64,000 bases of DNA. Source: Microbacterium hydrocarbonoxydans. Lineage in GTDB: Bacteria; Actinomycetota; Actinomycetes; Actinomycetales; Microbacteriaceae. The DNA lies in contig NZ_JAMBOY010000001.1 of NCBI RefSeq assembly GCF_023715885.1, positions 558,001 through 622,000 on the forward strand, read 5' to 3'. This document shows positions 13,653-26,151 of this stretch, piece by piece. Below the pieces are notes generated by a model that searched no databases, was not told the origin of the DNA, and saw only the letters and a list, made by a program, of their open reading frames with translations. The position numbers and the translations under genes are program-made. Numbering within the stretch: the stretch's first letter is position 1; each line of letters opens with the position of its first letter.

Positions 13653-13701
13653 GGAATCCTCCGTTGGAATGTGGTGCGTTCGGGTGTGGTCTTGATTACC
13701 A

Positions 13702-13731
13702 TAGGGTAGAGATAGCACCCTAGGGTTACAA
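13702..13731 (-). promoter_or_regulatory. Amino-sugar operon promoter with overlapping GntR-type operator
   Basis: On the minus strand, TTGTAA (13731-13726), a 17-base spacer and TACCCT (13708-13703) form a plausible -35/-10 pair about 50 bases before the lipoprotein ATG. The inverted repeat TAGGGT-N9-ACCCTA (13702-13722) covers most of the spacer and the -10 box. The perfect palindrome ACCCTAGGGT (13717-13726) adjoins the -35 box. A repressor here would directly block RNA polymerase, and the divergent GntR gene is the obvious candidate. Confidence 0.65.
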
Positions 13732-13834
13732 GGAAGTTACATGGTTGGATGAAGATGCGCAACGACTTCTTGGATCGAATGCATGACGAGAAGCGTGATA
13801 GTCATGAACCTGACCATCCGCGAAAGGAGGGGAC

Positions 13835-14533
13835 GTGGCCGCGAAATACGAGCTCGTGATGAAAGAGCTCTCAGCGGAGATCGCGGGAATGCGAGCGGGT
13901 GATCAGCTGCCGACCGAACAGCAGCTCGCCGCACGCTTCAACGTCTCCTCGATGACCGTGCGCCGCGCACTCGAAGCGCTCACCCACGCGAAGCGGATCG
14001 TGGGGATCCGCGGCAAGGGAACCTTCGTCGCAGAGCCGGCACTCACGAAGAGGATGACGCTGGCGTCGTTCACGGAGTCGATGCGCGCGGCGGGGCGCAC
14101 CGCGCGCGCCGAGGTCCTGTCGGCGGGCATCGCACCGGCCTCGGCCGACGTCGCCGACGGGCTCGGACTCGAAAGCGCAGCCTCGGTGTACACGGTCGAG
14201 CGGTTGCGATTCGGCGACGACACCCCCTTGAGCATCGACCGATCCCAGCTCCCGGCAGAGCTGTTCCCGAACCTTCTGGGCAACGACCTCACCGGCTCGC
14301 TCTACGAGATCCTCCGACGGCGGTATGACGTGCACCTCACCCGGGCCTCGTCACGCGTGGCCGCCGTGCTGCCGACAGAGCGTGAGGCAGAACTGCTCGG
14401 GATCACGGCGGATCAGCCCTGTCTGCGCGTCGTCGCGCGCGGAAGCCTCGGCGACGGGCGAGTGGTCGAGGTCACCCGGTCGATCTACCGAGGAGACCTG
14501 TACGAGCTGCTCATCGAGCCGGAAGACACCTGA
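13835..14533 (+). CDS. GntR-family (HutC/UTRA) transcriptional regulator
   Basis: A 232-residue repressor. The N-terminal winged helix (about 1-70) contains LPTEQQLAARFNVSSMTVRRALEAL and the wing residues RIVGIRGKGTFVAEP. A UTRA effector-binding domain (about 85-228) follows, with SVYTVERLRFGDDTPLSIDRSQLP. The GTG at 13835 has AAAGGAGG four bases upstream. It is divergent from the amino-sugar operon, with a candidate operator in the gap. By analogy with DasR, NagR and NanR it probably senses a phosphorylated amino sugar; the ligand is unknown. Confidence 0.92.
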   Translation: MAAKYELVMKELSAEIAGMRAGDQLPTEQQLAARFNVSSMTVRRALEALTHAKRIVGIRGKGTFVAEPALTKRMTLASFTESMRAAGRTARAEVLSAGIAPASADVADGLGLESAASVYTVERLRFGDDTPLSIDRSQLPAELFPNLLGNDLTGSLYEILRRRYDVHLTRASSRVAAVLPTEREAELLGITADQPCLRVVARGSLGDGRVVEVTRSIYRGDLYELLIEPEDT

Positions 14534-14546
14534 GTCTCCTCCATGA

Positions 14547-15074
14547 CTACCGTCGCCCTCCGACGGTGTCGCTGTGCGCTGCATCCAGTGCGACACGCAG
14601 CCTGTCTCGCGCCCGAGACAGACGTGAGCGGGCGGTGGAGGCGTTGATGCCGAGGATCGCGGCCGCCTCGTCCGAGGAGAAGCCGTCCCAATAGGTGAGC
14701 CGTACGAGTTCTGCATCACTGTGAGAGAGGGATCGCAGGGCGAGCTGCACATCGAGCGCAGTATCGTCCCATTCCGGTGGCGCCCAGGTACGCGCATCCT
14801 GCACCAGTCGCTCGACCGCGGCCGAGCGACGCGAAAGCGAACGTCGAGTGCCGCGCAGGATGTTGTTCGCTGTCGCGAACAGCCACATCCTGCCCTCGGT
14901 GGGGTCGCCCGGAACTCGGCGACGAAGTTTCCATGTGAGGAACAGCAGCTCGCCGACGGCCTCGGCAGCCTCGGCGTTGTTGAGAAGACGACGCTGGAAG
15001 TAGGCCATGAGGTCGTCGATGTTGACTCGCACGAGCGCGTCGATCCGCGCCCGCAGATCCTCCGGGCCGCTCAC
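14547..15074 (-). CDS. ECF-type RNA polymerase sigma factor
   Basis: A 175-residue sigma factor with region 2 (about 10-75, NIDDLMAYFQRRLLNNAEAAEAV and FLTWKLRRRV) and region 4 (about 115-165, ELVRLTYWDGFSSDEAAAIL, then NASTARSRLSRARDRL, a clear HTH). The GTG at 15074 overlaps the TGA of the upstream membrane protein and has GAGGG six bases before it. The ATG at 15080 is an alternative lacking spacing. The partner membrane protein is transcribed first, the reverse of the usual sigma-then-anti-sigma order. This pair opens the accessory region. Confidence 0.85.
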   Translation of the reverse strand: MSGPEDLRARIDALVRVNIDDLMAYFQRRLLNNAEAAEAVGELLFLTWKLRRRVPGDPTEGRMWLFATANNILRGTRRSLSRRSAAVERLVQDARTWAPPEWDDTALDVQLALRSLSHSDAELVRLTYWDGFSSDEAAAILGINASTARSRLSRARDRLRVALDAAHSDTVGGRR

Positions 15075-15661
15075 TGGCATCCCTCGGCCTGGCTGAACAG
15101 GCTGACGTACCCCTCGTCGCCGTCCGCAGAGAATCCTCGAGCCTCCAGCTCGGCGAAGAGCAGGCCGGCAACGGTCTGGTGCATCGCCGACTGCGCGATG
15201 TCCTCGTCGGTGTAGTGGAAGACACCCGGCGTGCCGTCGTCGTACGGCTGGTCGTTCTCCGCCTCGAGTTCGGCTCTCGCCGCCGATGTGTCGAGGGAGT
15301 CCAGGTCGAGTCCGGACACGAACTGTCGCGCCTGCAACACCACCTCCGCGTCGGGGGCTGCACCGTCCGGCTTCACGACGAGGCCGGCGAAGCAGGTCTG
15401 GCCGCTCGGCCCGGGGATCTCGTACACGGCATCGGCCGTCCAGCCCCAGGGCGTCTGCGTACCGTTTCCCGCCACCGCGACGGTCCCGCCGCCGATAAGC
15501 GCCAAGGAGGCGGTCGCGGCGGCCACCCACGCCCGCGACCGGCGACGGCGTCGCCGTCGTGCGTCGTCGAGCACCAGCATCCCGTGCTCGGCTAGTGCGA
15601 CACCGCTCGCGATGCGTGGGGCGGCCGAGCGGAGTCGCGCGTCGAGATCGACCTCGTTCAT
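15071..15661 (-). CDS. Single-pass membrane protein, probable anti-sigma regulator
   Basis: A 196-residue protein. An N-terminal cytoplasmic segment (about 1-40) ends in a run of arginines, followed by one membrane helix (about 44-65) and an outer domain of about 130 residues. Two cysteines (QTCFAG, EGCQ) lie in the outer domain, the last one at the very C-terminus. It is co-transcribed with the ECF gene downstream. The start at 15661 follows AAGGGA. The N-terminal part resembles proteins that hold ECF factors at the membrane, but no zinc-binding anti-sigma motif is visible, so the role is inferred from context. Confidence 0.65.
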   Translation of the reverse strand: MNEVDLDARLRSAAPRIASGVALAEHGMLVLDDARRRRRRRSRAWVAAATASLALIGGGTVAVAGNGTQTPWGWTADAVYEIPGPSGQTCFAGLVVKPDGAAPDAEVVLQARQFVSGLDLDSLDTSAARAELEAENDQPYDDGTPGVFHYTDEDIAQSAMHQTVAGLLFAELEARGFSADGDEGYVSLFSQAEGCQ

Positions 15662-15812
15662 GGAAGAGTCCCTTCTGAGAGAAGCATCACCCAGTACATG
15701 GCCGCTCGGGCGACAACTGTCCATCGCATCTCGAACTTCGCGGCACCGACGCGGTTGGGGGTCCCTGGAGCGATGCAGGCGAACGCCTTCTGCACCGCTG
15801 CAGAACAGATGT

Positions 15813-15841
15813 GTAAGGAACTCGCTGCACGCGCAAAAAGG
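15813..15841 (+). promoter_or_regulatory. Spaced motif copy A (GTAAGGAA-N11-CGCAAAAAGG)
   Basis: One of four copies in this region of GTAAGGAW, exactly 11 bases, then CGCAARRRGG. This copy points toward the truncated peptide gene that follows on the plus strand. The purine-rich end could act as a ribosome binding site, the whole as an ECF promoter or as a regulator site; the sequence alone does not decide. Confidence 0.55.
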
Positions 15842-15842
15842 T

Positions 15843-16043
15843 GCGCAGTGGACGGTACGCACTTCGACGGCCACTCACGGAGCTGCCGCATCTTACGGCT
15901 CGGCCATTGGCTACGGATGCGTTAACACCAACCTCACGGGTTGGAGCGTCAACACGAAGGGCTACATGAACAAGGGCGCCGTCATCTATGAGACGCCTTA
16001 CGTGACGGACAGCTTCGGCCTAGCGCAGAACTGCGGTCGATAG
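15843..16043 (+). pseudogene. 5'-truncated small secreted-peptide gene
   Basis: An open frame of about 66 codons ending at TAG 16041-16043. It has credible protein character (HGAAASYGSAIGYGCV, NTKGYMNKGAV, then YETPYVTDSFGLAQNCG) but no in-frame ATG, GTG or TTG near a ribosome binding site, and no signal peptide. Two cysteines (GYGC and QNCGR) bracket a Gly/Asn/Tyr-rich core of the kind seen in small secreted actinobacterial proteins. GC is lower than in flanking genes. Motif copy A lies directly upstream. I read it as the 3' remnant of a secreted-peptide gene; an intact gene with an unusual start is less likely. Confidence 0.4.
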
Positions 16044-16091
16044 ACCGTCTCGGGGGCGAGCAGCCATGCGCAGCTCGCCCCCACCCGGGAA

Positions 16092-17066
16092 TCAGTCCCC
16101 TGCGCTCCACGGCACGTTGTCGTCGATACGCACCGATACAGTGTCGAGGCGGTCGTCGTTGAACAACTGTCGGAAAAGTGGCTGGGCGGCAGCAACGACG
16201 AGCGAGTCAGGAAAGAGGGCCTGCAGCCGGGGGCGATGCCACACGAGGTTATCGAAGGGGTTCACGAGCACGGCGCGCGCCGTTGCGTCCCCCCCTACTA
16301 CTGGGCTGTCCGCCAAGACCCATACGGGAGCATCCCATCGATGAACGCGACCTTGCTCAGCTCCGATGTCATGGAGCGCACGGGTGACGGATTCTTCCCG
16401 CAGCCGCAGGTAGTCAGCAACGTCATCGGCGGTCGCGACGCCGAGGCACCTCAGCGCATCGGCTACCACGCGGCGGAGCCCGCCCGCGGGGTCAACAGTG
16501 GCGTTGAGTACTTGCGCGGGCAGCGCGCGTTCAGGCAGGTCGAAGAGCCTGTGCCAGTTTCGTCGACGAACGCACACGATGTCGCCGGTCCACACCATGT
16601 GCTCGAGCGCTTCTTTCGTCGGCCCCCACGACCAGCCGTTGCTCCGACTGTCGTCCCCTCGAAGCTGCTTCAGGGTGAGCGGCCCTTCCGCCTGCAGCCG
16701 GTCAGGGCGGCGCGCACGCTATCGGAGGGTGCCCAGTCGAAGTTCTGGTCGCGGATGGACGCGCGCCGGAACTCCCGATGCGGCCAGCGCTTCACCGTCA
16801 CCAGAGAGGCGGCGTGAACGGGAGCTTCGAACACCATCGCCATGTCCGCACCCCACAGGTCGTCATCGACCTGCGCCCCGGTGCGGTCCGGGACCCGCGA
16901 GGACAGGGTCATCGCGTGCGCCCGACCCGCCACCGCGATGGCGTCCAGCTGAATCACCCCGAGGTGGTTTACCGCATCAGCGACCGTGACGAACCGCGAG
17001 TGGATGCCGGACGCCGCGACGGCACGGCGTCGCGCTTCCGTCTCCGTCAGATCGATGTCGATGATG
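16092..17066 (-). pseudogene. AlkZ/YcaQ-like DNA glycosylase gene with frameshift
   Basis: Two adjacent minus-strand frames join into one protein of the winged-helix AlkZ/YcaQ family (crosslink-repair glycosylases). The first half holds TETEARRRAVAASGIHSRF, VNHLGVIQLDAIAVAGRAH (the family QxD site) and WPHREFRRASIRDQNFDW. The second holds GWSWGPTKEALEHMVWTGD and VNPFDNLVWHRPRLQALF. The switch occurs at about 16703, where restoring one base gives AALDRLQAEGPLTLKQLRG. No usable start codon is in frame: where ATG is expected, five bases after GGAGG, the sequence reads ATC. Either a real pseudogene or two sequencing errors; decay is more likely. Confidence 0.75.
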
Positions 17067-17115
17067 TCCTCCGAACACGAGCGTGCGCTGCCATCCCACC
17101 ACGTCTTCCGTCACG

Positions 17116-18267
17116 CTACGCTCTCAAGAGCTCGCTCGGAGAGACCCGTGTCGCAGCCCATGCGGGGATCAGCGCGCTCACACAGCCGAGGACCGCGGCG
17201 GCTGCGGGAAGGACAAGCAGTGCGGTCGGAAGGTAGAACAAGGGGTAGGAGGCTGCGCTCACGCCCGCCGCGACGAGCGTCCCGAGGAGGAAGCCAACGA
17301 TGCCGCCGAGAAGACCGACGATGGTTCCCTCCACCACGATCTGACCGGACACGAACGAGCGTGTATAGCCGAGTGCCAAGTAGAGTCCCATCTCGCGTCG
17401 ACGCTCGGTCAATGAGGCGAATGTCGTGGCGGCGAGGGTGAGAAACCCTGTGGCCCCGGCGATGAGTCCGATGAGTCCGGTGAGGTTGTTGCCTCGGCTC
17501 AGGATCTCGGCACGCAGCTCCTGCGCGCTTGGTGAGCTGAGAACGGTCACCGTCTCCGGCGCGGACGGTGCCAGGGCGAGGGCGATCTGCTGCTGTAAGC
17601 GTCCGGTGACGTTTCCCTCGGTCTCTATCGTGAGGACGCGGTTGTCGGGGAGATAGCCAGCGGCCCGTGCGGAAGCAGGTGGAAACACGACACTCGCTGA
17701 TATCCACGCCTCGTCGCTCGCGATGATGCCGAGAACGGTGAACCGCTTCCCGTCGATGAGCACCGAGCCCGCGGACACATCCAGGTAGTCGAGTTCTCGC
17801 GCAACCCGGGAACCGAGGTACACGGCACCCACATCGTCCGAGACGACCCCATCCGCGCCGAGGCCTCCCGTCTTCACTGTCGCAGCGCCCGTGCGCAACC
17901 CGCTCGGTGTCCCTACGCCGAATGCTGATTCAACGGTGCGGTCGGTCGTTGGGTTGGTGACGACGACGGAACCATTCGTCCGGTCTGGCGGCACAAGCGT
18001 GCCCGCATCACGTATCTGAGGTTGGTCGCTGAGCGCAGCAAGGAGCGTGGCTTCGCCGGCATCCCAGAACGTCGCTGGTAGGAGCACCGTCACACGTGAG
18101 CTGGTGGCTGAGTCCAACCGCGCAGTGACGGCTTCGGAGGATCCGACGGCGAGGGACGAGGGGATCACGATGGCGGCGACGCCGGCTCCGACAACGACGA
18201 GGGACATGAGGTTTCGTCTCCACCGCCGCAGGACGGACTTCACCGCAAGTCGAATGCTGCCTCTCAT
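17116..18267 (-). CDS. MacB/FtsX-type ABC transporter permease
   Basis: A 383-residue permease. One N-terminal membrane helix (about 20-42) is followed by a large extracytoplasmic MacB_PCD-like domain (about 50-245), then three C-terminal helices of the FtsX domain (about 260-375). RRREMGLYLALGYTRSFVSGQIVVEG is the usual FtsX cytoplasmic coupling segment (split here as RRREMGLYLALGY and RSFVSGQIVVEG). It is the last gene of the five-gene operon and overlaps its ATPase by four bases. MacB-type permeases move or sense substrates outside the membrane rather than importing them. Confidence 0.9.
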   Translation of the reverse strand: MRGSIRLAVKSVLRRWRRNLMSLVVVGAGVAAIVIPSSLAVGSSEAVTARLDSATSSRVTVLLPATFWDAGEATLLAALSDQPQIRDAGTLVPPDRTNGSVVVTNPTTDRTVESAFGVGTPSGLRTGAATVKTGGLGADGVVSDDVGAVYLGSRVARELDYLDVSAGSVLIDGKRFTVLGIIASDEAWISASVVFPPASARAAGYLPDNRVLTIETEGNVTGRLQQQIALALAPSAPETVTVLSSPSAQELRAEILSRGNNLTGLIGLIAGATGFLTLAATTFASLTERRREMGLYLALGYTRSFVSGQIVVEGTIVGLLGGIVGFLLGTLVAAGVSAASYPLFYLPTALLVLPAAAAVLGCVSALIPAWAATRVSPSELLRA

Positions 18268-18944
18268 CCTGCGGCGCTCTCAGCGAGCCCGTCACGCACG
18301 TTGATTCGTCGGTCGCAGCGCGCTGCCAGGGACTCATCATGGGTGACGATGACGACGGCAGTTGTCGGCGAGACGGAGGCGAGCAGGGCATCGACGACGA
18401 TTGCTCCGTTTGCGCTATCGAGGTTTCCGGTCGGTTCGTCACAGAGAAGGAGGCGCGGATCGCGGACGAGCGCCCGGGCGATAGCCACTCGCTGCTGCTC
18501 TCCCCCGGAGAGCGTCTTCGGAAACGCGCGGGCATGACTGCTGAGTCCGAGGGCGGCGAGTTGCCTGTCAACTCGCGTGCGCCGCTCCCTGGTCTCGTGG
18601 TGGTCGTGCAGGCCCAGCATGACGTTCTCTTCCACGGTCAGATGCGGCACGAGATGGAAAGCCTGAAAGATGAACGAGATCTCTCCGCGCCGGGCGGCAG
18701 CAGCTTCCTTCGAACTAGGGGCCATGGCATCCCGACCAAGAATGCGGAGCTCGCCATCGGTGGGAGTTTCCAGCATCCCGAGCATGCTCAACAGCGTCGT
18801 TTTCCCGGATCCGCTCGGTCCGACAATCGCGACGGACGTCCCCGCTTCGATGGTGAAGGTCGCCGACTTGACACCCTGCGCCCCGGGTTCGAATATACGG
18901 CGCGCACCCTCGGCGGCGACGACCACGGTGGACTCTTCACCCAA
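18264..18944 (-). CDS. MacB/LolD-type ABC transporter ATP-binding protein
   Basis: A 226-residue ATPase with Walker A (GPSGSGKTT, near residue 42), Q-loop (FIFQAFHLVPHLTVEENV), signature (LSGGEQQRVAIARAL), Walker B (LLLCDEPTGNLDS) and the switch His (VTHDES). It matches the LolD/MacB class. The first in-frame start is TTG at 18944, inside the end of the adaptor gene; GTG at 18926 is an alternative that would shorten the N-terminus by six residues. It powers the FtsX-type permease encoded directly downstream. Confidence 0.93.
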   Translation of the reverse strand: MGEESTVVVAAEGARRIFEPGAQGVKSATFTIEAGTSVAIVGPSGSGKTTLLSMLGMLETPTDGELRILGRDAMAPSSKEAAAARRGEISFIFQAFHLVPHLTVEENVMLGLHDHHETRERRTRVDRQLAALGLSSHARAFPKTLSGGEQQRVAIARALVRDPRLLLCDEPTGNLDSANGAIVVDALLASVSPTTAVVIVTHDESLAARCDRRINVRDGLAESAAG

Positions 18945-20061
18945 GGAGGACGACCTTCATCCCGTCAACGATTCCGTCGCCGCTGATGGCGCAGTAGCCG
19001 CCCGCGCAGAGCGTGACCTCCACGGGGTGGTCATGGTCCGTGTCGGCGTTCGAAGACGATTCCCGGATGAAGGTCTTCCCCCCGGCCGTCTCTCGAATCG
19101 CAGTGGATGGAACGCGGAGGGCATCGTCGGGCGACGTGTCGATGACGACCTCGGCTGTTTCCGCAAGGTCGGCGCGAACGTCGTCGGGGACCTCGCTCAA
19201 CGAATACCAGCGTTGAGGATCGGACTCGTCGGAGCCGTCGGGGGTCTCCTCGACATCTGCGCGTACGGAGGTGGGTTCTCCGATGGTGGCGGCGACGTCG
19301 GCGCCAGACCCTGTGCTCAAGGCGATGGGGAGCCCGGTGAGTTCCTGGTCGCTGTCACTGGCGATGGTGACGGCGACGCTCTGCGAGTTCAGCGTGCATT
19401 TCAGACTGTCCGCCGGCTGACCGACACGGCCGCATTCACTGCCCACGTCCACGGGGGTGGCGGCGGCAAAGACATACCGGGATAGGGGAAGGCCGGTGTC
19501 CCGCCAGTTCTGTGCCGGCGTCCCGTCAGCTGTGACGACGGTGAGGTTGCGGCTCTTGTAGTGCTCGAACAACGCACCGGCTGTGGACGGGCCGAAGACG
19601 CCAGCCTTGTCGTTGACGGTGAGACCGGCGCGGCGGAGGTAGTCCTGCAGCTGTGTGACGTCGCTACCCTCCGCACCTTGCGCCAGGCTCCGGTACGCGG
19701 GAACGGCACCTTGAATGACGATGACGGGTTGTTCGCTGATGCTGAGCAGCACACCGCCGTCATCGACCGAGGCGGGTGCCTCACCCGTGACGATCCCAGT
19801 ACCGAACTGCGTCGGCGGGATGTCGAGTGTGGCGAGCGGTGTCAAGTGGACCTCAACAGACAGCGTCTTCTGCACCGGTCCTGTCTCTATCGAGGCGACG
19901 ACATCGGCTGGCTTCTGCTCGGTCGCTTGCGTGGCCTGGTAGTTGCCGACTCCGATGACAGTCAGCACACCCACCGATGCGACCGCGATAAGAAGCGCGG
20001 TGACGACGGCGCTGACGCTGACGAGGACGGATGCGCGTGCTCGATGCTTCATGTCAGCCAT
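18937..20061 (-). CDS. Peptidoglycan-binding, HlyD-like adaptor protein
   Basis: A 374-residue protein with an N-terminal membrane anchor (about 12-38). A beta-rich segment is followed by a PG_binding_1 domain (about 125-175, GAEGSDVTQLQDYLRRAGL, then VFGPSTAGALFEHYK) and a C-terminal membrane-fusion-protein-like region (about 230-374) ending with a disulphide-prone pair (TLCAGGYCAISGDG). It fits the MacA-like adaptor slot beside a MacB-type transporter, adapted to a thick cell wall. The ATG at 20061 overlaps the lipoprotein stop by eight bases; ATG at 20052 is the alternative. Neither has a clear Shine-Dalgarno sequence, so translation is probably coupled. Confidence 0.82.
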   Translation of the reverse strand: MADMKHRARASVLVSVSAVVTALLIAVASVGVLTVIGVGNYQATQATEQKPADVVASIETGPVQKTLSVEVHLTPLATLDIPPTQFGTGIVTGEAPASVDDGGVLLSISEQPVIVIQGAVPAYRSLAQGAEGSDVTQLQDYLRRAGLTVNDKAGVFGPSTAGALFEHYKSRNLTVVTADGTPAQNWRDTGLPLSRYVFAAATPVDVGSECGRVGQPADSLKCTLNSQSVAVTIASDSDQELTGLPIALSTGSGADVAATIGEPTSVRADVEETPDGSDESDPQRWYSLSEVPDDVRADLAETAEVVIDTSPDDALRVPSTAIRETAGGKTFIRESSSNADTDHDHPVEVTLCAGGYCAISGDGIVDGMKVVLLG

Positions 20062-20971
20062 TGATGATGTCGACGGCGCGCTCCTGAACGAGCCTCAGTT
20101 CCTCTTGCATGGCCAGGAGCCTGCCTTCGTTGGCTTTCAGCCAGTCGGCGGATTCGGCGGCGAACGCAGCGGCGACAGTGTCGCGCAGGTTGACCTCCGC
20201 CTGGCAGTCGAAGTCGGCAACGGCGAGATCTTGCTCATCCTTTCCGGGCTGCTCGCCCGGCGCCCGGTACGCTCCGAACAACTCCTCAGCGAGGGCGGGC
20301 ACGTCGAAGTCGTCGACGGTGTAGCCCTTGGCGTCCATGCACTTCTCGTAGTCGGGGGCAAGCGCTGACACTTGGGCGTCGCGTTCGTTTCCCGCGTCAC
20401 CTGCGGTGGTCAAGTACTCGTTCACGAGTCCCGTGAAAGCGAGAGCGGACTCCACAGACCCGTACAGCTCCGTCTGTGCTTCCGCGATGCACCCTACCTT
20501 CGAAGTGGAAAGCTTCATTCCGTTATCGAGGCTCACTTCGATCTGCTCTGAGCCGTCGGGACCGAAGAGGGCACTGTAATACTTCTGCCGGTCGCTCTCT
20601 GTCAACGATTCCTCCCATTCGCTGACGACGTTCTTACCGTCGCTGATGGTGGTCGCGTAGCCGGTGCGCTTGGCTTCGTCGGCAGAAGTGAACAGGTTGG
20701 AGAGGCCGTAAGAGAGTGGCGTGGACTGGGCGGCATCGGAATCGAACGGCATGTTGAGCCCGGCAGCGCGGACGCATTCTTGCACCCTGAGCGCCTGGGC
20801 GATGCTGATCTCCGGAGGGAACGCCGTGAGCGTAGAGGCTGCCTCGAGGGTATCGCCGGAGATGTCGCCTGCGTCCGACGACCCGGTGCAGCTGGTGAGC
20901 AGAAGGGCCGAGCTCAGGCCCGCAATCACGAGAAGATTGCGAACCTGAGCCCGAGAGTTGTAGTGCGTCAT
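20054..20971 (-). CDS. Lipoprotein with four conserved-type cysteines
   Basis: A 305-residue secreted lipoprotein with signal sequence and lipobox LLLTSC (Cys near residue 28). The mature part has four spaced cysteines in short helical motifs (QECVRAAGLN, GCIAEAQTELYG, YEKCMDAKGY, DFDCQAEVNLRD), suggesting two disulphides linking helices, and an otherwise Ala/Glu-rich composition. Similar Cys-x2-3-Ala-x-Gly lipoproteins accompany PG-binding/MacB operons in other actinobacteria, as far as I recall. It starts nine bases after the I36-like gene without a clear ribosome binding site. Function is unknown; substrate capture or immunity for the secreted protein are options. Confidence 0.75.
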   Translation of the reverse strand: MTHYNSRAQVRNLLVIAGLSSALLLTSCTGSSDAGDISGDTLEAASTLTAFPPEISIAQALRVQECVRAAGLNMPFDSDAAQSTPLSYGLSNLFTSADEAKRTGYATTISDGKNVVSEWEESLTESDRQKYYSALFGPDGSEQIEVSLDNGMKLSTSKVGCIAEAQTELYGSVESALAFTGLVNEYLTTAGDAGNERDAQVSALAPDYEKCMDAKGYTVDDFDVPALAEELFGAYRAPGEQPGKDEQDLAVADFDCQAEVNLRDTVAAAFAAESADWLKANEGRLLAMQEELRLVQERAVDIING

Positions 20972-20980
20972 GTGAGGATG

Positions 20981-21322
20981 TCAGGCGCTGCGGTAGTGGT
21001 CGATCTTGTTGTTGTTGCCGCTGAAGCTGCTGACGCTCGCGCCGGCAGGGATGTAGGCCAGCGTCTCCTCCTGACCGAACGCGGTGTTGTTCTTCGCGTT
21101 GTAGTTCCTGCTGGTCTTGTTCTGCGCGGAGTTGGTGACGTCGTCCGGCACCTCGACGAAGGTGCCGTTACCACCCTGCCAGGTGGTCCCGCCGTAGCTG
21201 TTGGCGTCGTAAGAGCACATGTTGCCGGTGTTGCACGTCGCCGCGTGGGCGGGGGCAACTCCGAGGCCAATCATGAGGGCGGCGGCTGCGGCAGCAACGA
21301 CGGCGCCGGTCTTCTTCTTCAC
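20981..21322 (-). CDS. Small secreted protein, peptidase inhibitor I36-like
   Basis: A 113-residue secreted protein with a classical signal peptide (KKK, an Ala/Leu-rich core, cleavage after AHA near residue 27). The mature domain of about 86 residues begins with the I36-like Cys knot motif (TCNTGNMCSYDANSYGGTTW) and continues with an Asn/Gly-rich beta domain. The family includes the Streptomyces metalloproteinase inhibitor SMI. The GTG at 21322 has AAGGAG seven bases upstream. It is the first gene of the operon with the lipoprotein, adaptor and MacB transporter. Inhibition of a protease is a family-level guess; a lectin-like or antimicrobial role is also possible. Confidence 0.8.
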   Translation of the reverse strand: MKKKTGAVVAAAAAALMIGLGVAPAHAATCNTGNMCSYDANSYGGTTWQGGNGTFVEVPDDVTNSAQNKTSRNYNAKNNTAFGQEETLAYIPAGASVSSFSGNNNKIDHYRSA

Positions 21323-21810
21323 AGTGGTTCTCCTTGAACTCGATGCTATGAGTGGATGAGGCCTCGCGACATGTCTAACGGCGCGCTCACAAGCCGTCTG
21401 TCGGCCGTTTGGGGGACACGACGTCCGTCCTTTCGCCGTCTCTCTATCGCCGGACGCCGGATGATTCGAGCAAATCCCTGTTCATCGCAGATTTGTCTGA
21501 GTCGACCTACCGCTTCCCGCCTGAGTGAAAGAGCAAGCCGTCGCCACTCGAGAGAAAAGGTCGGTAAGGATTCGCCAGTTCACGCAAGAGGTCGCGAGGC
21601 GGGCGGAGGCCTTGACGCACGTTCGAGGACCAGCGTTCGACCGGCGCGGTCGCTGTCGCCCCGTCGCGGCGCGAACCGAAGACAGTGAACTCCAACACTT
21701 GGGGGATTGACCTCGAGAAGCGCGGGATGCCATCACCCCGCCCCCTGTCCCTGTCGGAGCCAGGTCATGCCCCGAATACAGCCCGCGAGGGAAGGTGGAT
21801 CCCTGGAGTG
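21323..21810. other. 488-bp gap without a supported gene
   Basis: Open frames on both strands here are short, overlap each other and lack ribosome binding sites and normal codon use, so none is called. The gap must hold the promoter of the I36-like operon (minus strand), though no convincing -35/-10 pair was found. It contains motif copy D at 21564-21592 on the plus strand, which faces no intact gene. Confidence 0.5.
21564..21592 (+). promoter_or_regulatory. Spaced motif copy D (GTAAGGAT-N11-CGCAAGAGGT)
   Basis: Fourth copy of the GTAAGGAW-N11-CGCAARRRGG motif, differing in the last base. It lies in the gene-free stretch upstream of the I36-like operon but on the opposite strand, and no open frame follows it within normal distance. 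Confidence 0.5.
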
Positions 21811-22785
21811 CTATCCGATGTCCCAGAGCGTGTAACCCACAACGCCGGCGGGGATGAAGTCCTGGGCCACGGTCAGTTCATTCTCGATACCTACGATCCG
21901 ACCGGTGTCGCGAGAGATGAGAACGGTGTCCTGATAAGTCGTCGTTGGGTCCGAGACCCGCAACCCGACGACGCCACGTCCGAGCCTGTCCGTCGACTCC
22001 CCCAGAACGGCGACGCTCCCAGCGTCGATAAGACGGTCGATGAGGACGGCATGCTGCTCGTCAGTGAGCGTCCAGTAGCTCAGCAGACGTCCGATGACGA
22101 CGAGGATCTCGCCGGAAGACGCGGACGCCGTCGCCCCGAGGCTGATGAGGGCTCTCTCCACCGATTCGCGTGATCCGTCACGCAGGCTCACGACGTCCGC
22201 CGGGATCTTCAAGTCCTCAGGAGCGGTGACCAGTTCCGTGATGGTCTCGCCCGGTTGGTACGGGCTCGGCTCGATGCCCTCCGGTCGGACGCCATCAGGC
22301 CAGAAAGGCTCGCCCGCGACGATGGTGCTGCGGGACCCGGTCTCCGGCGACCACTCGAAAGTAACGATCTGAGGGACAGACTCGACGCGCTTTTTCGCCA
22401 GATCGATATCCCATCCCCACACCAGCGAGGAGACACTGCGCTCCTGTTCCACAGAAGCGCCGGACTCGAGGTGTTCCTGCGCCTCCTGGACAACCGCGGC
22501 CAGCGGTTGAGGGTTCACGAATCGCAACGGCGGTGGTGTGAGCGCGACAGCCTGCTGTGTGGGGGCGAGGGCGTTCGTGGCGATGACGACGACGGCGATG
22601 ATGGCGGTGACTGCGACAGCGAGACGTCCCCACGCCCAGCCCTGCCGCTCTCGCGCTGGCGCATGTGTGCCCCGGATGATGTTTTCCCGCACGGCAATCG
22701 CCTGTGCGGTCAGCCCGTCGGCGCGCGTCGTGGAGGGGTTCGCGGCCCGAAAGAGCCGGTCGATTTCCTCGTCCGGGATGTTCAC
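21811..22785 (-). CDS. CU044_5270-like membrane protein, sigma-factor partner
   Basis: A 324-residue protein with a cytoplasmic N-terminus (about 1-48, DEEIDRLFRAANPSTTRADG), one membrane helix (about 52-72) and a large outer domain starting LTPPPLRFV. This layout is shared by CU044_5270 family proteins, which regularly follow ECF sigma genes. The GTG at 22785 overlaps the sigma stop and has GGGAGGG before it. The outer domain contains ESGASVEQERSVSSLVWGWD and QPGETITELV, reminiscent of sensor domains linked to small-molecule or envelope signals. An anti-sigma function is inferred from the pairing. Confidence 0.75.
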   Translation of the reverse strand: MNIPDEEIDRLFRAANPSTTRADGLTAQAIAVRENIIRGTHAPARERQGWAWGRLAVAVTAIIAVVVIATNALAPTQQAVALTPPPLRFVNPQPLAAVVQEAQEHLESGASVEQERSVSSLVWGWDIDLAKKRVESVPQIVTFEWSPETGSRSTIVAGEPFWPDGVRPEGIEPSPYQPGETITELVTAPEDLKIPADVVSLRDGSRESVERALISLGATASASSGEILVVIGRLLSYWTLTDEQHAVLIDRLIDAGSVAVLGESTDRLGRGVVGLRVSDPTTTYQDTVLISRDTGRIVGIENELTVAQDFIPAGVVGYTLWDIG

Positions 22786-23390
22786 GATCTGCCCTCCCTC
22801 GACTCCAACTGTGCACGGAGTTTTGCTCGTGCGCGAGTGAGGGTGGTCCATACGGCCGGCTGGCTCGAACGAAGGACATCGGCGATCTCACCGGCGCTGA
22901 GCTCATCCCAGTAGGTGAGAACCACCACCTGTCGCTCTCGGGCGTTCAACGTCTTCATTGCCTGGCGCAGTGCGAGCGCGTCGAGCGGATGGATCGTGTC
23001 CGCGGCGTTCCGCAACCCTCGCGTCAGAGCTTCCATCGCGCGTCCACGCGAGTGCGCCTTGCGGTCGACATCGCGAAGCTTGTTGTCGGCCGTGCGGATG
23101 AACCACCGCAGGCTCATCGGCTTGTCGGCCTCCAGCTTCTTCCACGCGACAACGAACACCTCAGCCGCGATCTCGTTGACCTCTTCGCCGTTGTCGAGAT
23201 AGCACTCCAGATGCCGATGCACCTTCGGCCAGTATTCGTCGAACAACGTCCGGAACACCGCCGCCTTGTTCGGCGCCGACTCCTCTGCGGCACGGCGTGC
23301 ACTGATCAACGGAGACTGTTCGGCGGCGGCGAAAACAGCAAGGAGGTTCTCCGTGAACCCCCGTGGCATCACTGCAACCGCCTCACTCAT
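22782..23390 (-). CDS. ECF-type RNA polymerase sigma factor
   Basis: A 202-residue sigma factor with region 2 (about 43-110, TLFDEYWPKVHRHLECYL, then EVFVVAWKKLE and LRWFIRTADNKLRDV) and region 4 (about 145-195, ARERQVVVLTYWDELSAGEI and a HTH through LTRARAKLR). An N-terminal extension of about 40 residues precedes region 2. It starts 24 bases after the second I36-like gene on the same strand, so secreted protein, sigma factor and its membrane partner may form one transcript. It is the best candidate to drive the repeated motif in this region. Confidence 0.85.
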   Translation of the reverse strand: MSEAVAVMPRGFTENLLAVFAAAEQSPLISARRAAEESAPNKAAVFRTLFDEYWPKVHRHLECYLDNGEEVNEIAAEVFVVAWKKLEADKPMSLRWFIRTADNKLRDVDRKAHSRGRAMEALTRGLRNAADTIHPLDALALRQAMKTLNARERQVVVLTYWDELSAGEIADVLRSSQPAVWTTLTRARAKLRAQLESREGRS

Positions 23391-23414
23391 CGCCGTGCAC
23401 TCAGGCTAACTCGC

Positions 23415-23867
23415 TTAGAGGGTGCAAAGGAGGTTGGTCGTACCGGCCCCAACATCGGTTGCGCTGTTCGGACCGGCGGTGCCGAGCACGGTAGCGGCGG
23501 AGTTCCGCGCGCGGACCAGTCCCGAACTGCGTCCGTTCGCGATGGACCCAACGGTCCGAAGCGCGGAGGTGCTCACGTTTGTGCAGACGGAGAACGTCAG
23601 CTTCGAGCCGCTCATCCCTGTGCCGCTGTACGCACAATACGTTCCCGTCGCGCAGTTCCCCACGGCACGGGCCGAGGTCGCCCCGGTGGTGAGCGTCATA
23701 CCGAGGTCCGGCCACACCACCTTGTTGTCGCTCACGGCGACACCGCCGGGCACTGCGTCCATCGCGTACTCGACATCCGGATGGAGATCCTCGGATGCGT
23801 GCGCGGCGGCAGGAGTCAATGTCGCGGCGAGGAGCACTGCGACAGCAACGCTGAGAATTCTCTTCAT
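23415..23867 (-). CDS. Secreted I36-like protein ahead of ECF sigma operon
   Basis: A 150-residue secreted protein with signal peptide (KRILSVAVAVLLAATLTPA, cleavage after AHA near residue 24), a propeptide-like segment (about 25-65) and a C-terminal cysteine-rich domain. That domain holds GNCATGTYCAYSGTGMSGSK and FSVCTNVSTSALRTVGSIA, with a last cysteine two residues from the end (LLCTL). The CxxGxxCxY pattern is shared with the 113-residue protein 2 kb downstream. The ATG at 23867 follows GGAGACACC. It could be the signal or effector governed by the ECF system behind it; no activity can be inferred with confidence. Confidence 0.75.
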   Translation of the reverse strand: MKRILSVAVAVLLAATLTPAAAHASEDLHPDVEYAMDAVPGGVAVSDNKVVWPDLGMTLTTGATSARAVGNCATGTYCAYSGTGMSGSKLTFSVCTNVSTSALRTVGSIANGRSSGLVRARNSAATVLGTAGPNSATDVGAGTTNLLCTL

Positions 23868-23977
23868 GGTGTCTCCGAAGACGATGGCGGTGCACCGCGT
23901 CGATACGCGGGTCAGGGCGTGAGCGCACCTGCGACCTCAGTATCTGTTGCAGGGTGTGGGGCACTGGAGGCGAACGA

Positions 23978-24006
23978 CCTCCTTGCGGCACCCGCGAATT
24001 CCTTAC
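23978..24006 (-). promoter_or_regulatory. Spaced motif copy C (GTAAGGAA-N11-CGCAAGGAGG)
   Basis: Minus-strand copy about 110 bases upstream of the I36-like/ECF operon and in the same orientation. It is the copy best placed to be an autoregulated ECF promoter or regulator site. The end AAGGAGG also looks like a ribosome binding site, but no good open frame follows it. Confidence 0.55.
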
Positions 24007-24159
24007 AGACTTCCTCGAACGTGGTCATCTATCCGGCTGGCGGAACCCACGGAAAGAGGGGTTTGAGGAATGGAAGGACGCCGAACAAACATTCTGTGTG
24101 GGTCGACGAACGGCATGGCCGGGGTGACCATGGGCCTGACCAGGATCGCGATACAGGCG

Positions 24160-24188
24160 CCCCTTTGCGCGTGCAGGTGATTCCTTAC
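24160..24188 (-). promoter_or_regulatory. Spaced motif copy B (GTAAGGAA-N11-CGCAAAGGGG)
   Basis: Second minus-strand copy, 182 bases upstream of copy C. It shares TGCACG in the spacer with copy A. A 42-codon open frame starts with ATG at about 24131 but ends at copy C and shows no domain. The rest of the 400-bp stretch from 23868 to 24273 holds no gene I can support. Confidence 0.5.
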
Positions 24189-24273
24189 ACGCCTCAGGGA
24201 GCGCCACTCAGTCATCCTCGACGACTGGTAGCTTCATGCGCTTATGTCCGGGCACCTAACGACTGGGGAGATC

Positions 24274-24435
24274 ATGTACTTTCGCATCGTCAACGACGCC
24301 GGCAGCAACCCGACCTGGAAGCTCTATAGCTCCAACGGTCAGCTCGTAGCCTGGGCGGGCGAGAGCTTCTGCCCGCAACCGTTGGAGCACTCGCTCCGCC
24401 GGCATAGTCGGCATCACTCGTATGCAATCGAATAG
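24274..24435 (+). pseudogene. DUF1508-like (YegP) gene, probably frameshifted
   Basis: A 53-codon frame. It begins with a clear DUF1508 repeat start (MYFRIVNDAGSNPTWKLYSS, then NGQLVAWAGESF) and then loses family similarity. In the next frame the sequence after GESF continues ARNRWSTRSAGIVGITRMQ, which looks like the missing second half, so a frameshift at about 24370 is likely. The ATG at 24274 has GGGGAG three bases upstream. DUF1508 proteins are normally about 55-110 residues with one or two repeats; their role is unknown. A plausible hairpin (GCCCCT/AGGGGC near 24451) follows. Confidence 0.5.
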
Positions 24436-24534
24436 TTTGACCAGCCGGCCCCTCAAGGGGCTATTCGTCGTGCGTCGAAACTGCGGCGAGCGCGAGACAA
24501 GTAATCGGATCGTCCTTGCAGCCCAAAAACGAAG

Positions 24535-24570
24535 CGGCGGCCGCCTCATTTCTCAATGAGGAAGCCGCCG
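24535..24570 (-). terminator. Hairpin downstream of tRNA-Leu
   Basis: A two-part stem: CGGCGGC (24535-24541) with GCCGCCG (24564-24570), enclosing CTCATT (24545-24550) with AATGAG (24555-24560). A smaller hairpin TTCACG-N6-CGTGAA at 24592-24609 lies nearer the tRNA 3' end. Either could end the tRNA-Leu transcript. The 183 bases from 24436 to 24618 contain nothing else recognisable. Confidence 0.55.
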
Positions 24571-24618
24571 AACTCGCATTTCATGAACTGATTCACGGTT
24601 TTTCGTGAACACGCCGTG

Positions 24619-24701
24619 TGCGCGAGGGGGGACTTGAACCCCCACGTCCATACGGACACTGGCACCTGAAGCCAGCGCGTCTACCATTCCGCCACTCGCG
24701 C
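24619..24701 (-). tRNA. leuT: tRNA-Leu (CAG)
   Basis: An 83-nt cloverleaf read on the minus strand. The acceptor pairs GCGCGAG with CTCGCGC, the anticodon stem is CTGGC/GCCAG with loop TTCAGGT (anticodon CAG), a class II variable arm is present, and the T-loop GTTCAAGTC is closed by five G-C pairs. The discriminator A is at 24619 and CCA is not encoded. It lies directly upstream of fhaA on the opposite strand, as in many actinobacteria. Its 3' end faces the accessory region. Confidence 0.95.
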
Positions 24702-24904
24702 GAGTCGTCTCGTTCCGAGGAACTCAACTTCGCAAGGCTATCACGCGCTCCACCCCCGCACGAAACCGGCCACAGCACGACGCTCCCCCGCGCGCTCGCT
24801 CCCGATACAGGCGTCCGAATCGCGCCGGAAGACCCCTCGGAACGGCGTACTTCCAGAACACCTGGCTACGATGTCCCTACCGGTCGGCATGCCAGAGGAG
24901 CCCA

Positions 24905-25627
24905 GTGGGACTACTTGACAGCTTTGAGAAGGGTCTCGAGCGCGCTGTGAACAGCGCCTTCGCGAAGACCTTCCGCAGCGGCATCCAGCCCGTGGAGATC
25001 GCTTCGGCGCTTCGGCGCGAGGCGGACACCAAGGCGGCTGTGGTCAGTCGCGACCGCATCCTCACGCCCAACAGCTATGTGGTGCGCCTGAGCACCGATG
25101 ATGCCGAGCGGATGCGGGGACTCGGCGGTGCGCTGACCGATGAGCTGCACGCGCTGCTGACCAAGCACGCGAAGTCGCAGGGCTACAGCTTCGCCGGCCC
25201 CCTCTCGATCTCCCTCGAGTCCGACGACATCCCCACCGGCACCGTGCGCGTCAGTTCCGGCACCGTCGAGGGCCGAGTCAACTGGCAGGCCGTGATCGAC
25301 GTCGACGGACGTCGCCACTCGCTCACCCGGGCCCGCACGGTGATCGGCCGCGGCTCCGACGCCGACATCACGATCGCGGATGCCGGGTCGAGCCGCAAGC
25401 ACGTCGAGGTGCTGTGGGACGGCGAGCGCGCCATGATGCGCGACCTCGGCTCCACGAACGGCACGAAGGTCAACGGATCGAAGGTCAGGGAGGCCGCTCT
25501 GCCCTCCGACACGACTCTCACGATCGGCCGAACCGACCTCGTCTTCCGTATCGTGCCGGTCGCGGCACCCTCGCGCCCTGCGCGCCCGCGCGACGACGAC
25601 GCGACCCGCGCCTTCGGAGCGATCTGA
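24905..25627 (+). CDS. fhaA: FhaA: DUF3662 and FHA domain protein
   Basis: A 240-residue protein with an N-terminal DUF3662 domain (about 1-110, LLDSFEKGLERAVNSAFAKT) and a C-terminal FHA domain (about 145-225). The FHA phosphothreonine-binding residues lie in IGRGSDADI, SSRKHVEV and LGSTNGTKVNG. FhaA binds phosphorylated partners of PknA/PknB, such as the lipid II flippase MviN, and helps set the pace of peptidoglycan synthesis. The GTG at 24905 has AGAGGAG four bases upstream, and TACGAT at 24867 may be the operon -10 box. It opens the seven-gene fhaA-pknB cluster. Confidence 0.95.
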   Translation: MGLLDSFEKGLERAVNSAFAKTFRSGIQPVEIASALRREADTKAAVVSRDRILTPNSYVVRLSTDDAERMRGLGGALTDELHALLTKHAKSQGYSFAGPLSISLESDDIPTGTVRVSSGTVEGRVNWQAVIDVDGRRHSLTRARTVIGRGSDADITIADAGSSRKHVEVLWDGERAMMRDLGSTNGTKVNGSKVREAALPSDTTLTIGRTDLVFRIVPVAAPSRPARPRDDDATRAFGAI

Positions 25628-26151
25628 TGACCACGCCCAGTGAGCTCGTCCTCCTCCTCATGCGCATCGGCTTCCTGGTGCTGCTGTGGTTCTTCGTGTT
25701 CGGCGTCGTCTACTCGCTGCGCGCCGACCTGTTCGGCATGAAGGTGCGCAAGCTCCCGGCAGACGGCGACGCGTCCGCGGCATCCCCCTCCACTCCCCCG
25801 GCACCGGCCAAGCGCCCGTCGTCGGCGAAGGCGAGCACCGGACCGGCGACCGTCGCGACGGCGAAGCGCCTCGTGATCACGTCGGGCCCGAAGGCGGGTC
25901 TCGAACTGCCGTTGGGCACCGACACCCTCACCATCGGCCGCTCGAGCGAGTGCGCGCTCGTGATCCGCGACGACTACACGTCCAGCCACCACGCACGCCT
26001 GCTGCTGCGCGGCGACGCCTGGGCGATCCAGGATCTCGAATCCACGAACGGCACCTTCGTCGCCGGCAACCGGGTCACGGGCGGACCCGTCGCCCTCGGC
26101 CTCGGCGTTCCCATCAAGGTGGGCGCCACGACCTTCGAGCTGCGAGCCTGA
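25627..26151 (+). CDS. fhaB: FhaB (FipA-type): membrane-anchored FHA protein
   Basis: A 174-residue protein with one N-terminal membrane helix (about 6-30), an Ala/Pro/Ser linker (about 48-80) and a C-terminal FHA domain (about 95-170). Phosphothreonine-binding motifs IGRSSECAL, TSSHHARLL and LESTNGTFVAG are intact. Its ATG overlaps the fhaA stop (TGATG). In mycobacteria the orthologue links PknA/PknB phosphorylation to division proteins. Domain order and position leave little doubt. Confidence 0.95.
   Translation: MTTPSELVLLLMRIGFLVLLWFFVFGVVYSLRADLFGMKVRKLPADGDASAASPSTPPAPAKRPSSAKASTGPATVATAKRLVITSGPKAGLELPLGTDTLTIGRSSECALVIRDDYTSSHHARLLLRGDAWAIQDLESTNGTFVAGNRVTGGPVALGLGVPIKVGATTFELRA

What the first reader, a model, noticed from the sequence alone, without database searches (positions are those of the whole stretch)
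15813..24188. Four exactly spaced copies of GTAAGGAW-N11-CGCAARRRGG confined to the accessory region
Copies lie at 15813-15841 (+), 21564-21592 (+), 23978-24006 (-) and 24160-24188 (-). Both halves and the 11-base gap are kept while the gap sequence changes, which is what a protein-DNA contact pattern leaves behind. Two copies sit upstream of the I36-like/ECF sigma operon in its orientation and one directly before a truncated peptide gene. I infer a promoter or operator class belonging to the local ECF systems. The purine-rich right half could instead be a ribosome binding site, or the motif could mark inserted segments.
Basis: partly seen in the sequence, partly recalled or inferred. Interest (0 to 1): 0.75.

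Follow-up and report, generated by a model that had tools for sequence, protein, structure and literature searches.

The report
Promoter signature of one ECF sigma
Four copies of a 30-base DNA pattern in a Microbacterium genome are likely on-switches read by one nearby regulator (an ECF sigma factor), because in relatives the same pattern sits beside that regulator and often before genes for secreted or membrane proteins, and is almost absent where the regulator is missing.

Summary
The motif is real: four sites in the window (shuffles average 0.13) and no other copy in the genome at up to 2 mismatches. Three copies fit exactly; copy 2 has one mismatch. Its fuller form is RAARAxGTS-TGTMAGGAA-N12-GCAAARRGG.

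It tracks one gene, the ECF sigma at 22782-23390. The window-derived pattern hit 8 of 295 same-genus genomes, all carriers of that sigma; own genome left out, 7 of 17 carriers versus 0 of 277 others (p=5.5e-10). With the matrix frozen, 7 of 7 further carriers had a site upstream on the sigma strand. The other local ECF has no match in 20 of 25 carriers.

Sites also precede exported or membrane proteins (24 of 42 sites, 5.2% of random positions), including peptide-ABC-transporter operons. Most likely this is the sigma's own promoter class, starting about T1+34 (inferred). Copy 3 would be the operon promoter, copy 4 a tandem partner, copy 1 an orphan promoter cut off by a rearrangement. Copy 2 faces back into the operon and is unexplained.

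The parts
23978..24019 (-). Copy 3 with its upstream A-rich block: promoter (inferred) of the I36-like / ECF sigma / anti-sigma operon; T1 = 24007, inferred start about 23973, leader about 106 nt
   Evidence: score 47.5, this copy being in the training set; start codon 140 nt after T1; an upstream sigma-strand site in 24 of 25 sigma-bearing genomes, this one included
24160..24201 (-). Copy 4: tandem copy 182 bp upstream of copy 3, same orientation, lowest score of the four; second promoter or decaying duplicate (inferred)
   Evidence: score 26.6; no start of its own 60-190 nt downstream; tandem sites also in G160 (73 bp apart) and G023 (39 bp)
15800..15841 (+). Copy 1: orphan promoter (inferred); same 30-base core as the site before an intact I36-like/sigma/anti-sigma operon in G292; T1 = 15812
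   Evidence: score 51.6; BLAST homology to G292 (95%) and G180 (87%) stops at 15846 (side-by-side letters)
21551..21592 (+). Copy 2: back-facing site between the exported-peptide gene and the anti-sigma gene, pointing into the anti-sigma 3' end; no protein target found
   Evidence: score 36.1; best - strand score in 21300-21830 is -6.3; divergent site pairs 133-134 bp apart before related transporter operons in G002, G135, G613
23415..23867 (-). Exported I36-like protein, first gene of the operon
   Evidence: Pfam Inhibitor_I36 20.7 bits against cut-off 21.1; 42 homologues
22782..23390 (-). ECF sigma factor whose presence the motif follows
   Evidence: Sigma70_r4_2 1.3e-12; TIGR02937 65.5 bits against 42.9; co-occurrence
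21811..22791 (-). Predicted membrane anti-sigma factor (CU044_5270-like, below that family's cut-off)
   Evidence: NCBIfam NF038083 6.8e-14, 52.4 bits against cut-off 100, for the ORF 21811-22851; follows the sigma in the window-type loci mapped
17116..21322 (-). Exported peptide (20981-21322), lipoprotein-like (20054-20971), HlyD-like/PG-binding (18937-20061), ABC ATPase (18264-18944), FtsX permease (17116-18267): related transporter genes have the motif in front in G002, G135 and G613; here no forward-facing site was found
   Evidence: Pfam (the PG_binding_1 match is below its cut-off; HlyD-like and lipoprotein-like are my labels); maps

Best explanation
The four copies are likely promoters of one class recognised by the ECF sigma factor encoded at 22782-23390, which would thereby switch on its own operon and a small set of genes, often for exported or membrane proteins. 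The association of the motif with this sigma gene, its orientation and distance to genes, and its single spacing are shown by the calls. The -35 element would be TGTMAGG(AA) and the -10 element (G)CAAA, with the start about 34 bases after T1; this assignment is inferred from ECF promoter geometry. Release of the sigma from the predicted membrane anti-sigma factor by an envelope signal is inferred from how such pairs usually work. Copy 3 would be the working operon promoter, copy 4 a tandem second copy, copy 1 a promoter orphaned by a rearrangement, and copy 2 an unexplained back-facing site.
For: (1) Window-derived pattern: 13 sites in 8 of 295 same-genus genomes, reversed control 1 hit; all 8 are among the 18 genomes with a sigma homologue of at least 52% identity. 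Own genome left out: 7/17 versus 0/277, Fisher 5.5e-10. (2) Refined pattern: 26 sites in 17 of 295 genomes, 25 of them in 16 of the 18 sigma genomes, 1 in a genome without it (G101); reversed control 13 hits in 13 genomes; partly circular. (3) Frozen matrix on 7 further sigma genomes: 7 of 7 have a site upstream on the sigma strand, best scores 24.6-42.4. (4) In G196, G261 and G643 no I36-like gene was found and the site directly precedes the sigma, so it follows the sigma rather than that gene. (5) 24 of 42 sites have an exported or membrane ORF starting 60-190 nt downstream, against 157 of 3000 random positions in the fetched loci. (6) 25 sites at one spacing; 2 of these sites also read at +1, none at other shifts from -6 to +6. 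(7) The second local ECF has no match at E<=1e-30 in 20 of 25 sigma genomes. (8) Sigma paralogues of 46-49% identity keep nearly the same presumed sigma-4 recognition helix and have a variant site with much the same left block and GCAATG for GCAAAG.
Against: No transcription start, binding or sigma-knockout data exist here. The -10 lacks the CGT and the -35 the AAC usual for ECF promoters (passages of PMC3426412; PMC8103513). A DNA-binding protein encoded elsewhere and co-inherited with the sigma is not excluded; I compared only the window's own genes between loci. Window copies 1, 2 and 4 have no gene start in the expected place, and the twins facing away from transporter operons have no clear protein target. 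In G052 the site nearest the sigma points away from it, towards a 70-aa protein. A second conserved element 56-64 nt after T1 in 11 of 16 leaders is not accounted for. The spacing test is partly circular, since the training sites were found at one spacing; a scan with the left block alone gives 33 hits, 27 with a right-block score above 3 at that spacing. Of the 7 held-out genomes, G651 is a near copy of G160 and G593 of G261 at the site, and the G604 site had been seen before as L058. The refined pattern misses 2 of 18 carriers (G282, G117) that have weaker sites.
Confidence: 0.84

Rival explanations
1. The motif is the operator of an unlinked DNA-binding regulator (the two blocks look like a direct repeat with a 20-bp period, YGYAARGRR), inherited together with the sigma operon.
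For: Left and right blocks resemble each other, and conservation runs about 38 bp, longer than a usual ECF promoter. Shared genes other than the window's own were not compared between loci.
Against: Sites directly precede the sigma where the I36-like gene is missing. Sigma paralogues have a matching variant site. Among the window's own genes only the sigma and anti-sigma recur at all mapped window-type loci.
Confidence: 0.11
2. The motif is part of a structured leader RNA (riboswitch or attenuator) in front of exported-protein genes.
For: Hairpins follow the motif in several loci (for example GTCCCCCGAAATGGGGGAC), and a second conserved element lies 56-64 nt after T1 in 11 of 16 leaders.
Against: Over 32 sites, 30-nt folding windows show only weak structure (lowest mean z -0.49 at +30 to +60, but also -0.46 upstream at -36 to -6) and none over the motif itself (+0.48 at 0 to +30). 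Rfam gives only sub-threshold matches at copies 2 and 4 (microRNA models, E 3.5 and 1.9).
Confidence: 0.03
3. The copies are ends or repeats of a mobile element; copies 1 and 4 are 34-nt inverted repeats facing inward.
For: Copies 1 and 4 pair over 34 nt at 79%; copy 1 sits at the edge of a strain-specific 8.8-kb segment.
Against: In relatives sites often occur singly before genes, with different flanks. G292 carries the copy 1 sequence with its upstream flank before an intact operon, without the segment. The right edge of the segment is the tRNA-Leu end, about 430 bp beyond copy 4. No shared direct repeat of 9 bp or more was found near the two ends.
Confidence: 0.01
4. The motif is coding: read in one frame it gives CKExxxxAKR.
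For: That frame is open through the motif in most of the 23 copies translated.
Against: In-frame stops lie inside the motif in L031 and L106(-), and just before or after it in many others. Third codon positions are as fixed as the others, and the downstream element changes frame between loci.
Confidence: 0.01

Closest known systems
ECF41 promoters (TGTCACA - N16+-1 - CGTC; PMC3426412, passages read)
   Same: TGTCA/TGTAA-type -35 block, near-fixed spacing, found upstream of the sigma gene or its neighbour gene, group-specific -35.
   Different: Here TGTMAGGAA and CAAA instead of TGTCACA and CGTC. ECF41 sigmas have a large C-terminal regulatory extension; this sigma is 202 aa with only region 2 and 4 matches and has an anti-sigma-like neighbour. 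The predicted regulon has several targets.
Mycobacterium tuberculosis sigma-H promoters (GGAAYA at -34 to -29, optimal 17-bp spacer, GTT; PMC6411747, passages read)
   Same: Geometry: setting T1 at -34 puts A24-A26 where GTT would lie; rigid spacer.
   Different: Both elements differ in sequence.
Autoregulated ECF / anti-sigma modules in general (PMC8103513, passages read)
   Same: Sigma and predicted anti-sigma in one operon behind the sigma's predicted own promoter, with extra targets.
   Different: An exported I36-like protein comes first in the operon in most mapped carriers; sites also lie before peptide-ABC-transporter operons and 70-74-aa proteins with two hydrophobic stretches.

Membership tests
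ECF-sigma-dependent promoter (general) | Two elements at one near-fixed spacing of ECF size | tested here: met
   25 sites at one spacing, 2 of them also readable at +1, none at other shifts (partly circular). TGTMAG-N17-AAA equals the sigma-H spacing.
ECF-sigma-dependent promoter (general) | Present with its sigma and upstream of the sigma operon | tested here: met
   16 of 18 versus 1 of 277 genomes; upstream site on the sigma strand in 24 of 25
ECF-sigma-dependent promoter (general) | Transcription from it needs the sigma factor | not testable with these tools
   needs start mapping and a sigma deletion
Canonical AAC/CGT ECF promoter subtype | AAC in -35 and CGT in -10 | tested here: not met
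   TGTMAGGAA and GCAAARRGG in the matrix of 17 sites
ECF41 promoter class | TGTCACA and CGTC, with an ECF41 sigma | tested here: not met
   motif differs; the sigma is 202 aa with only region 2/4 hits
[quoted passage not shown]
   Pfam r4_2 1.3e-12, r2 7.1e-5 (23 bits, just under its cut-off 24); TIGR02937 above cut-off
CU044_5270 family (gene 21811-22791) | Score above the family cut-off | tested here: not met
   52.4 bits against 100; related but not filed as a member
Peptidase inhibitor family I36 (gene 23415-23867) | Score above the Pfam cut-off | tested here: inconclusive
   20.7 bits against 21.1
Known structured RNA (Rfam) | Match above threshold at the motif or leader | tested here: not met
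   of 7 matches with E<=5 in 13000-26000 only tRNA-Leu passes its gathering score

The most novel reading that the evidence does not exclude
This sigma class carries a built-in brake: sites placed behind the operon and facing back into it (window copy 2; the variant sites behind the paralogous sigma genes in G185, G117, G238, G651 and G040) would make sigma-driven antisense RNA that limits the sigma or anti-sigma message, so that one promoter class both starts and ends the response.
Probability: 0.12. Interest if true: 0.65.

Novelty: new member of a known kind. Interest (0 to 1): 0.45.

Why it matters
It gives a sequence-level prediction of the regulon of an ECF sigma in Microbacterium for which my searches found no study: its own operon, exported proteins, small membrane proteins and peptide-ABC-transporter operons. 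Because the motif is long and rare (four copies in this genome), a handful of start mappings or reporter fusions would settle it. It also offers an unusual -10 (CAAA) for work on how ECF sigma factors choose promoters, with a natural paralogue pair (GCAAAG versus GCAATG) for comparison.

Tried and rejected
Second local ECF (14547-15044) as the reader of the motif: rejected, no match at E<=1e-30 in 20 of 25 carriers. Coding peptide: rejected by in-motif stops. Leader RNA: weak folding signal, no Rfam match above threshold. Inverted repeats of an element: rejected by relatives. A promoter in the second I36 clade: the shared word TGTGGGA turned out to lie in anti-sigma C-terminal codons (my reading of the letters), and word and dyad counts upstream of those sigmas gave nothing I could separate from shared sequence. 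A partner of copy 2 on the - strand: none. A protein target of the outward twins: none clear. Family-level search: 299 genomes, 6 of the same genus; 7 of the 293 of other genera hit once each at 3 mismatches against 16 reversed-control hits, so background only. In the target count the variant-site regions L119 and L166-L169 were left out, the random positions exclude the window, and related genomes are not independent.

Literature: the 10 papers listed of 793 do not hold CU044_5270; one search listed 1 unrelated paper; two searches found 0 papers; (12 of 47 listed), 48, 72 and 73 were seen as listings only. Passages were read of PMC6411747, PMC3426412 and PMC8103513. Absence from print rests on these searches of an open-licence library only. 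The labels HlyD-like, lipoprotein-like and two-helix protein are my own readings; that ECF sigmas are released from anti-sigma factors by a signal is general knowledge.
Full report
OBSERVATION. The pattern GTAAGGAW-N11-CGCAARRRGG is at the four stated places; copies 1, 3 and 4 are exact and copy 2 has one mismatch. Shuffles give 0.13 matches on average at up to 3 mismatches. The whole genome (3,483,679 bases, 27 contigs) holds no further match with 2 or fewer mismatches and seven with 3. A weight matrix built from 17 sites (copy 3 and one from each of 16 relatives) scores the four copies 26.6-51.6 and the next best window position -1.2.

RELATIVES. The window pattern with one extra 5' T, the W relaxed to N and one mismatch allowed finds 13 sites in 8 of 295 same-genus genomes; its reversed control finds 1. 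The genus is Microbacterium: contig lengths tie G125 to Microbacterium sp. 3J1 and G282 to Microbacterium sp. 1.5R. Searching the same 295 genomes with the ECF sigma at 22782-23390 gives 18 genomes with a homologue of at least 52% identity, and all 8 motif genomes are among them. Without the own genome this is 7 of 17 against 0 of 277 (Fisher 5.5e-10). Looking near the 18 sigma genes with up to four mismatches, 17 have the site upstream on the sigma strand; in the eighteenth (G052) it lies upstream but points the other way. Four of the 17 have 4 mismatches, a level that also gives a few chance hits in these loci, but all four lie in the same place and orientation. The twelve next paralogues looked at (L043-L054, 47% identity or less) have no site on the sigma strand; one (L043) has a 4-mismatch site on the other strand.

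REFINED MOTIF. The matrix reads RAARAxGTS TGTMAGGAA ... (A/T at 18) ... GCAAARRGG. As a pattern with up to 3 mismatches it gives 26 sites in 17 of 295 genomes; 25 sites are in 16 of the 18 sigma genomes and one (3 mismatches) in G101, which has no match to the sigma at E<=1e-20. The two carriers missed, G282 and G117, have weaker sites. The reversed control gives 13 hits in 13 genomes. This count is partly circular because the pattern came from those sites. In other genera of the family, 7 of 293 genomes have one 3-mismatch hit each, below the control's 16.

HELD-OUT TEST. A wider search (366 genomes) brought 7 further genomes with sigma matches of 58-79% identity. With the matrix frozen, all 7 have a site upstream on the sigma strand, 268-875 bp before the start of the match, best scores 24.6-42.4. 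Of 528,076 positions in loci without the window-type sigma operon, 4 exceed 8, the highest being 19.0. The seven are not all independent: G651 resembles G160 and G593 resembles G261, and the G604 site was already seen as L058.

TARGETS. Mapping regions of 14-20 kb shows sites (a) before the exported I36-like gene that heads the sigma operon; (b) directly before the sigma where that gene was not found (G196, G261, G643); (c) before a 130-aa exported peptide followed by HlyD-like, ABC and, where the fetched stretch reaches, FtsX genes (G002, G135, G613); (d) before other exported proteins (G022, G135, G160, G023, G613); (e) before 70-74-aa proteins with two hydrophobic stretches (G052 twice, G261, G643). 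By fixed criteria 24 of 42 sites have an exported or membrane ORF starting 60-190 nt downstream, against 157 of 3000 random positions in the fetched loci (binomial p=2.5e-20, relatedness not corrected). The other 18 include three that precede the sigma itself (L112, L114, L173), some whose gene misses a threshold, and sites with no visible target.

GEOMETRY. 25 sites pass at one spacing; two of them, with CCAAA, also read at +1; no other shift from -6 to +6 has any. With the left block alone, 27 of 33 hits have a right-block score above 3 at that spacing. Sigma-H promoters have their -35 at -34 to -29 and an optimal 17-bp spacer (PMC6411747, passages); ECF41 promoters are TGTCACA-N16+-1-CGTC (PMC3426412, passages). 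Setting T1 at -34 makes A24-A26 the -10 and puts the start at about T1+34. This is inference.

WHICH SIGMA. The ECF at 14547-15044 has a match of E<=1e-30 in only 5 of the 25 sigma genomes, own genome included. The presumed sigma-4 recognition helix (mostly VWTTLTRAR) is nearly the same in the window-type sigmas and in the five 46-49% paralogues. Those paralogues' loci have a variant site with much the same left block and GCAATG on the right, which fits recognition of both blocks by the sigma.

THE FOUR COPIES. Copy 3 is 140 nt before the I36-like start. Copy 4 lies 182 bp further up in tandem. Copy 1 has the same 30-base core as the site before an intact I36-like/sigma/anti-sigma operon in G292; BLAST homology to G292 and G180 ends at 15846, 34 bases after T1, and resumes at 24617 at the tRNA-Leu end. 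So 15847-24616 is not shared with these two relatives and copy 1 appears to have lost its operon. Copy 2 faces the anti-sigma 3' end. In three relatives the transporter operon has divergent site pairs 133-134 bp apart whose outward twin has no clear target; copy 2 may be such a twin whose partner is gone (inferred).

VERDICT. An ordinary kind of thing, an autoregulatory ECF promoter class, but one that is unusually well supported by comparison, has an atypical -10, and has an unexplained set of back-facing copies.

Noticed in passing
15847-24616: 8.8-kb segment not shared with G292 and G180, ending at the 3' end of tRNA-Leu(CAG) 24618-24701. G292 has a 60-65%-identical sigma operon in the opposite orientation in this slot. 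No shared direct repeat of 9 bp or more near the ends.
   Followed up: partly
21564-21592; L137-L140 and L043 near the sigma 3' end: Motif copies, or variants, behind sigma or anti-sigma genes that face back into them, with no clear protein target.
   Followed up: partly
about 23928-23946 (-) in the window; leaders of L025-L040, 56-64 nt after T1: A second conserved element, CGGATACTGAGATCGGAGG, downstream of the motif in 11 of 16 leaders; duplicated in L029. Role unknown.
   Followed up: partly
16092-16957: AlkZ-like gene in two pieces (16092-16598 and 16670-16957): looks like a pseudogene.
   Followed up: no
15841-16043: Remnant of a secreted-peptide gene without start or signal peptide; no Pfam match for the long ORF that holds it.
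   Followed up: no
20981-21322: Exported 113-aa peptide at the head of an ABC-transporter operon; only 2 homologues at E<=0.001 found in a search of 5.8 billion proteins.
   Followed up: no
L059-L078: A sister group has the order sigma, anti-sigma, I36-like gene (I36 last) and no site at the operon, in Microbacterium, Agromyces and an unclassified actinomycete; one site scoring 19.0 lies away from the sigma in L059 and one of 9.2 in L063.
   Followed up: partly
24244-24435: Fragment with a weak DUF1508 match (12.8 bits against 22).
   Followed up: no
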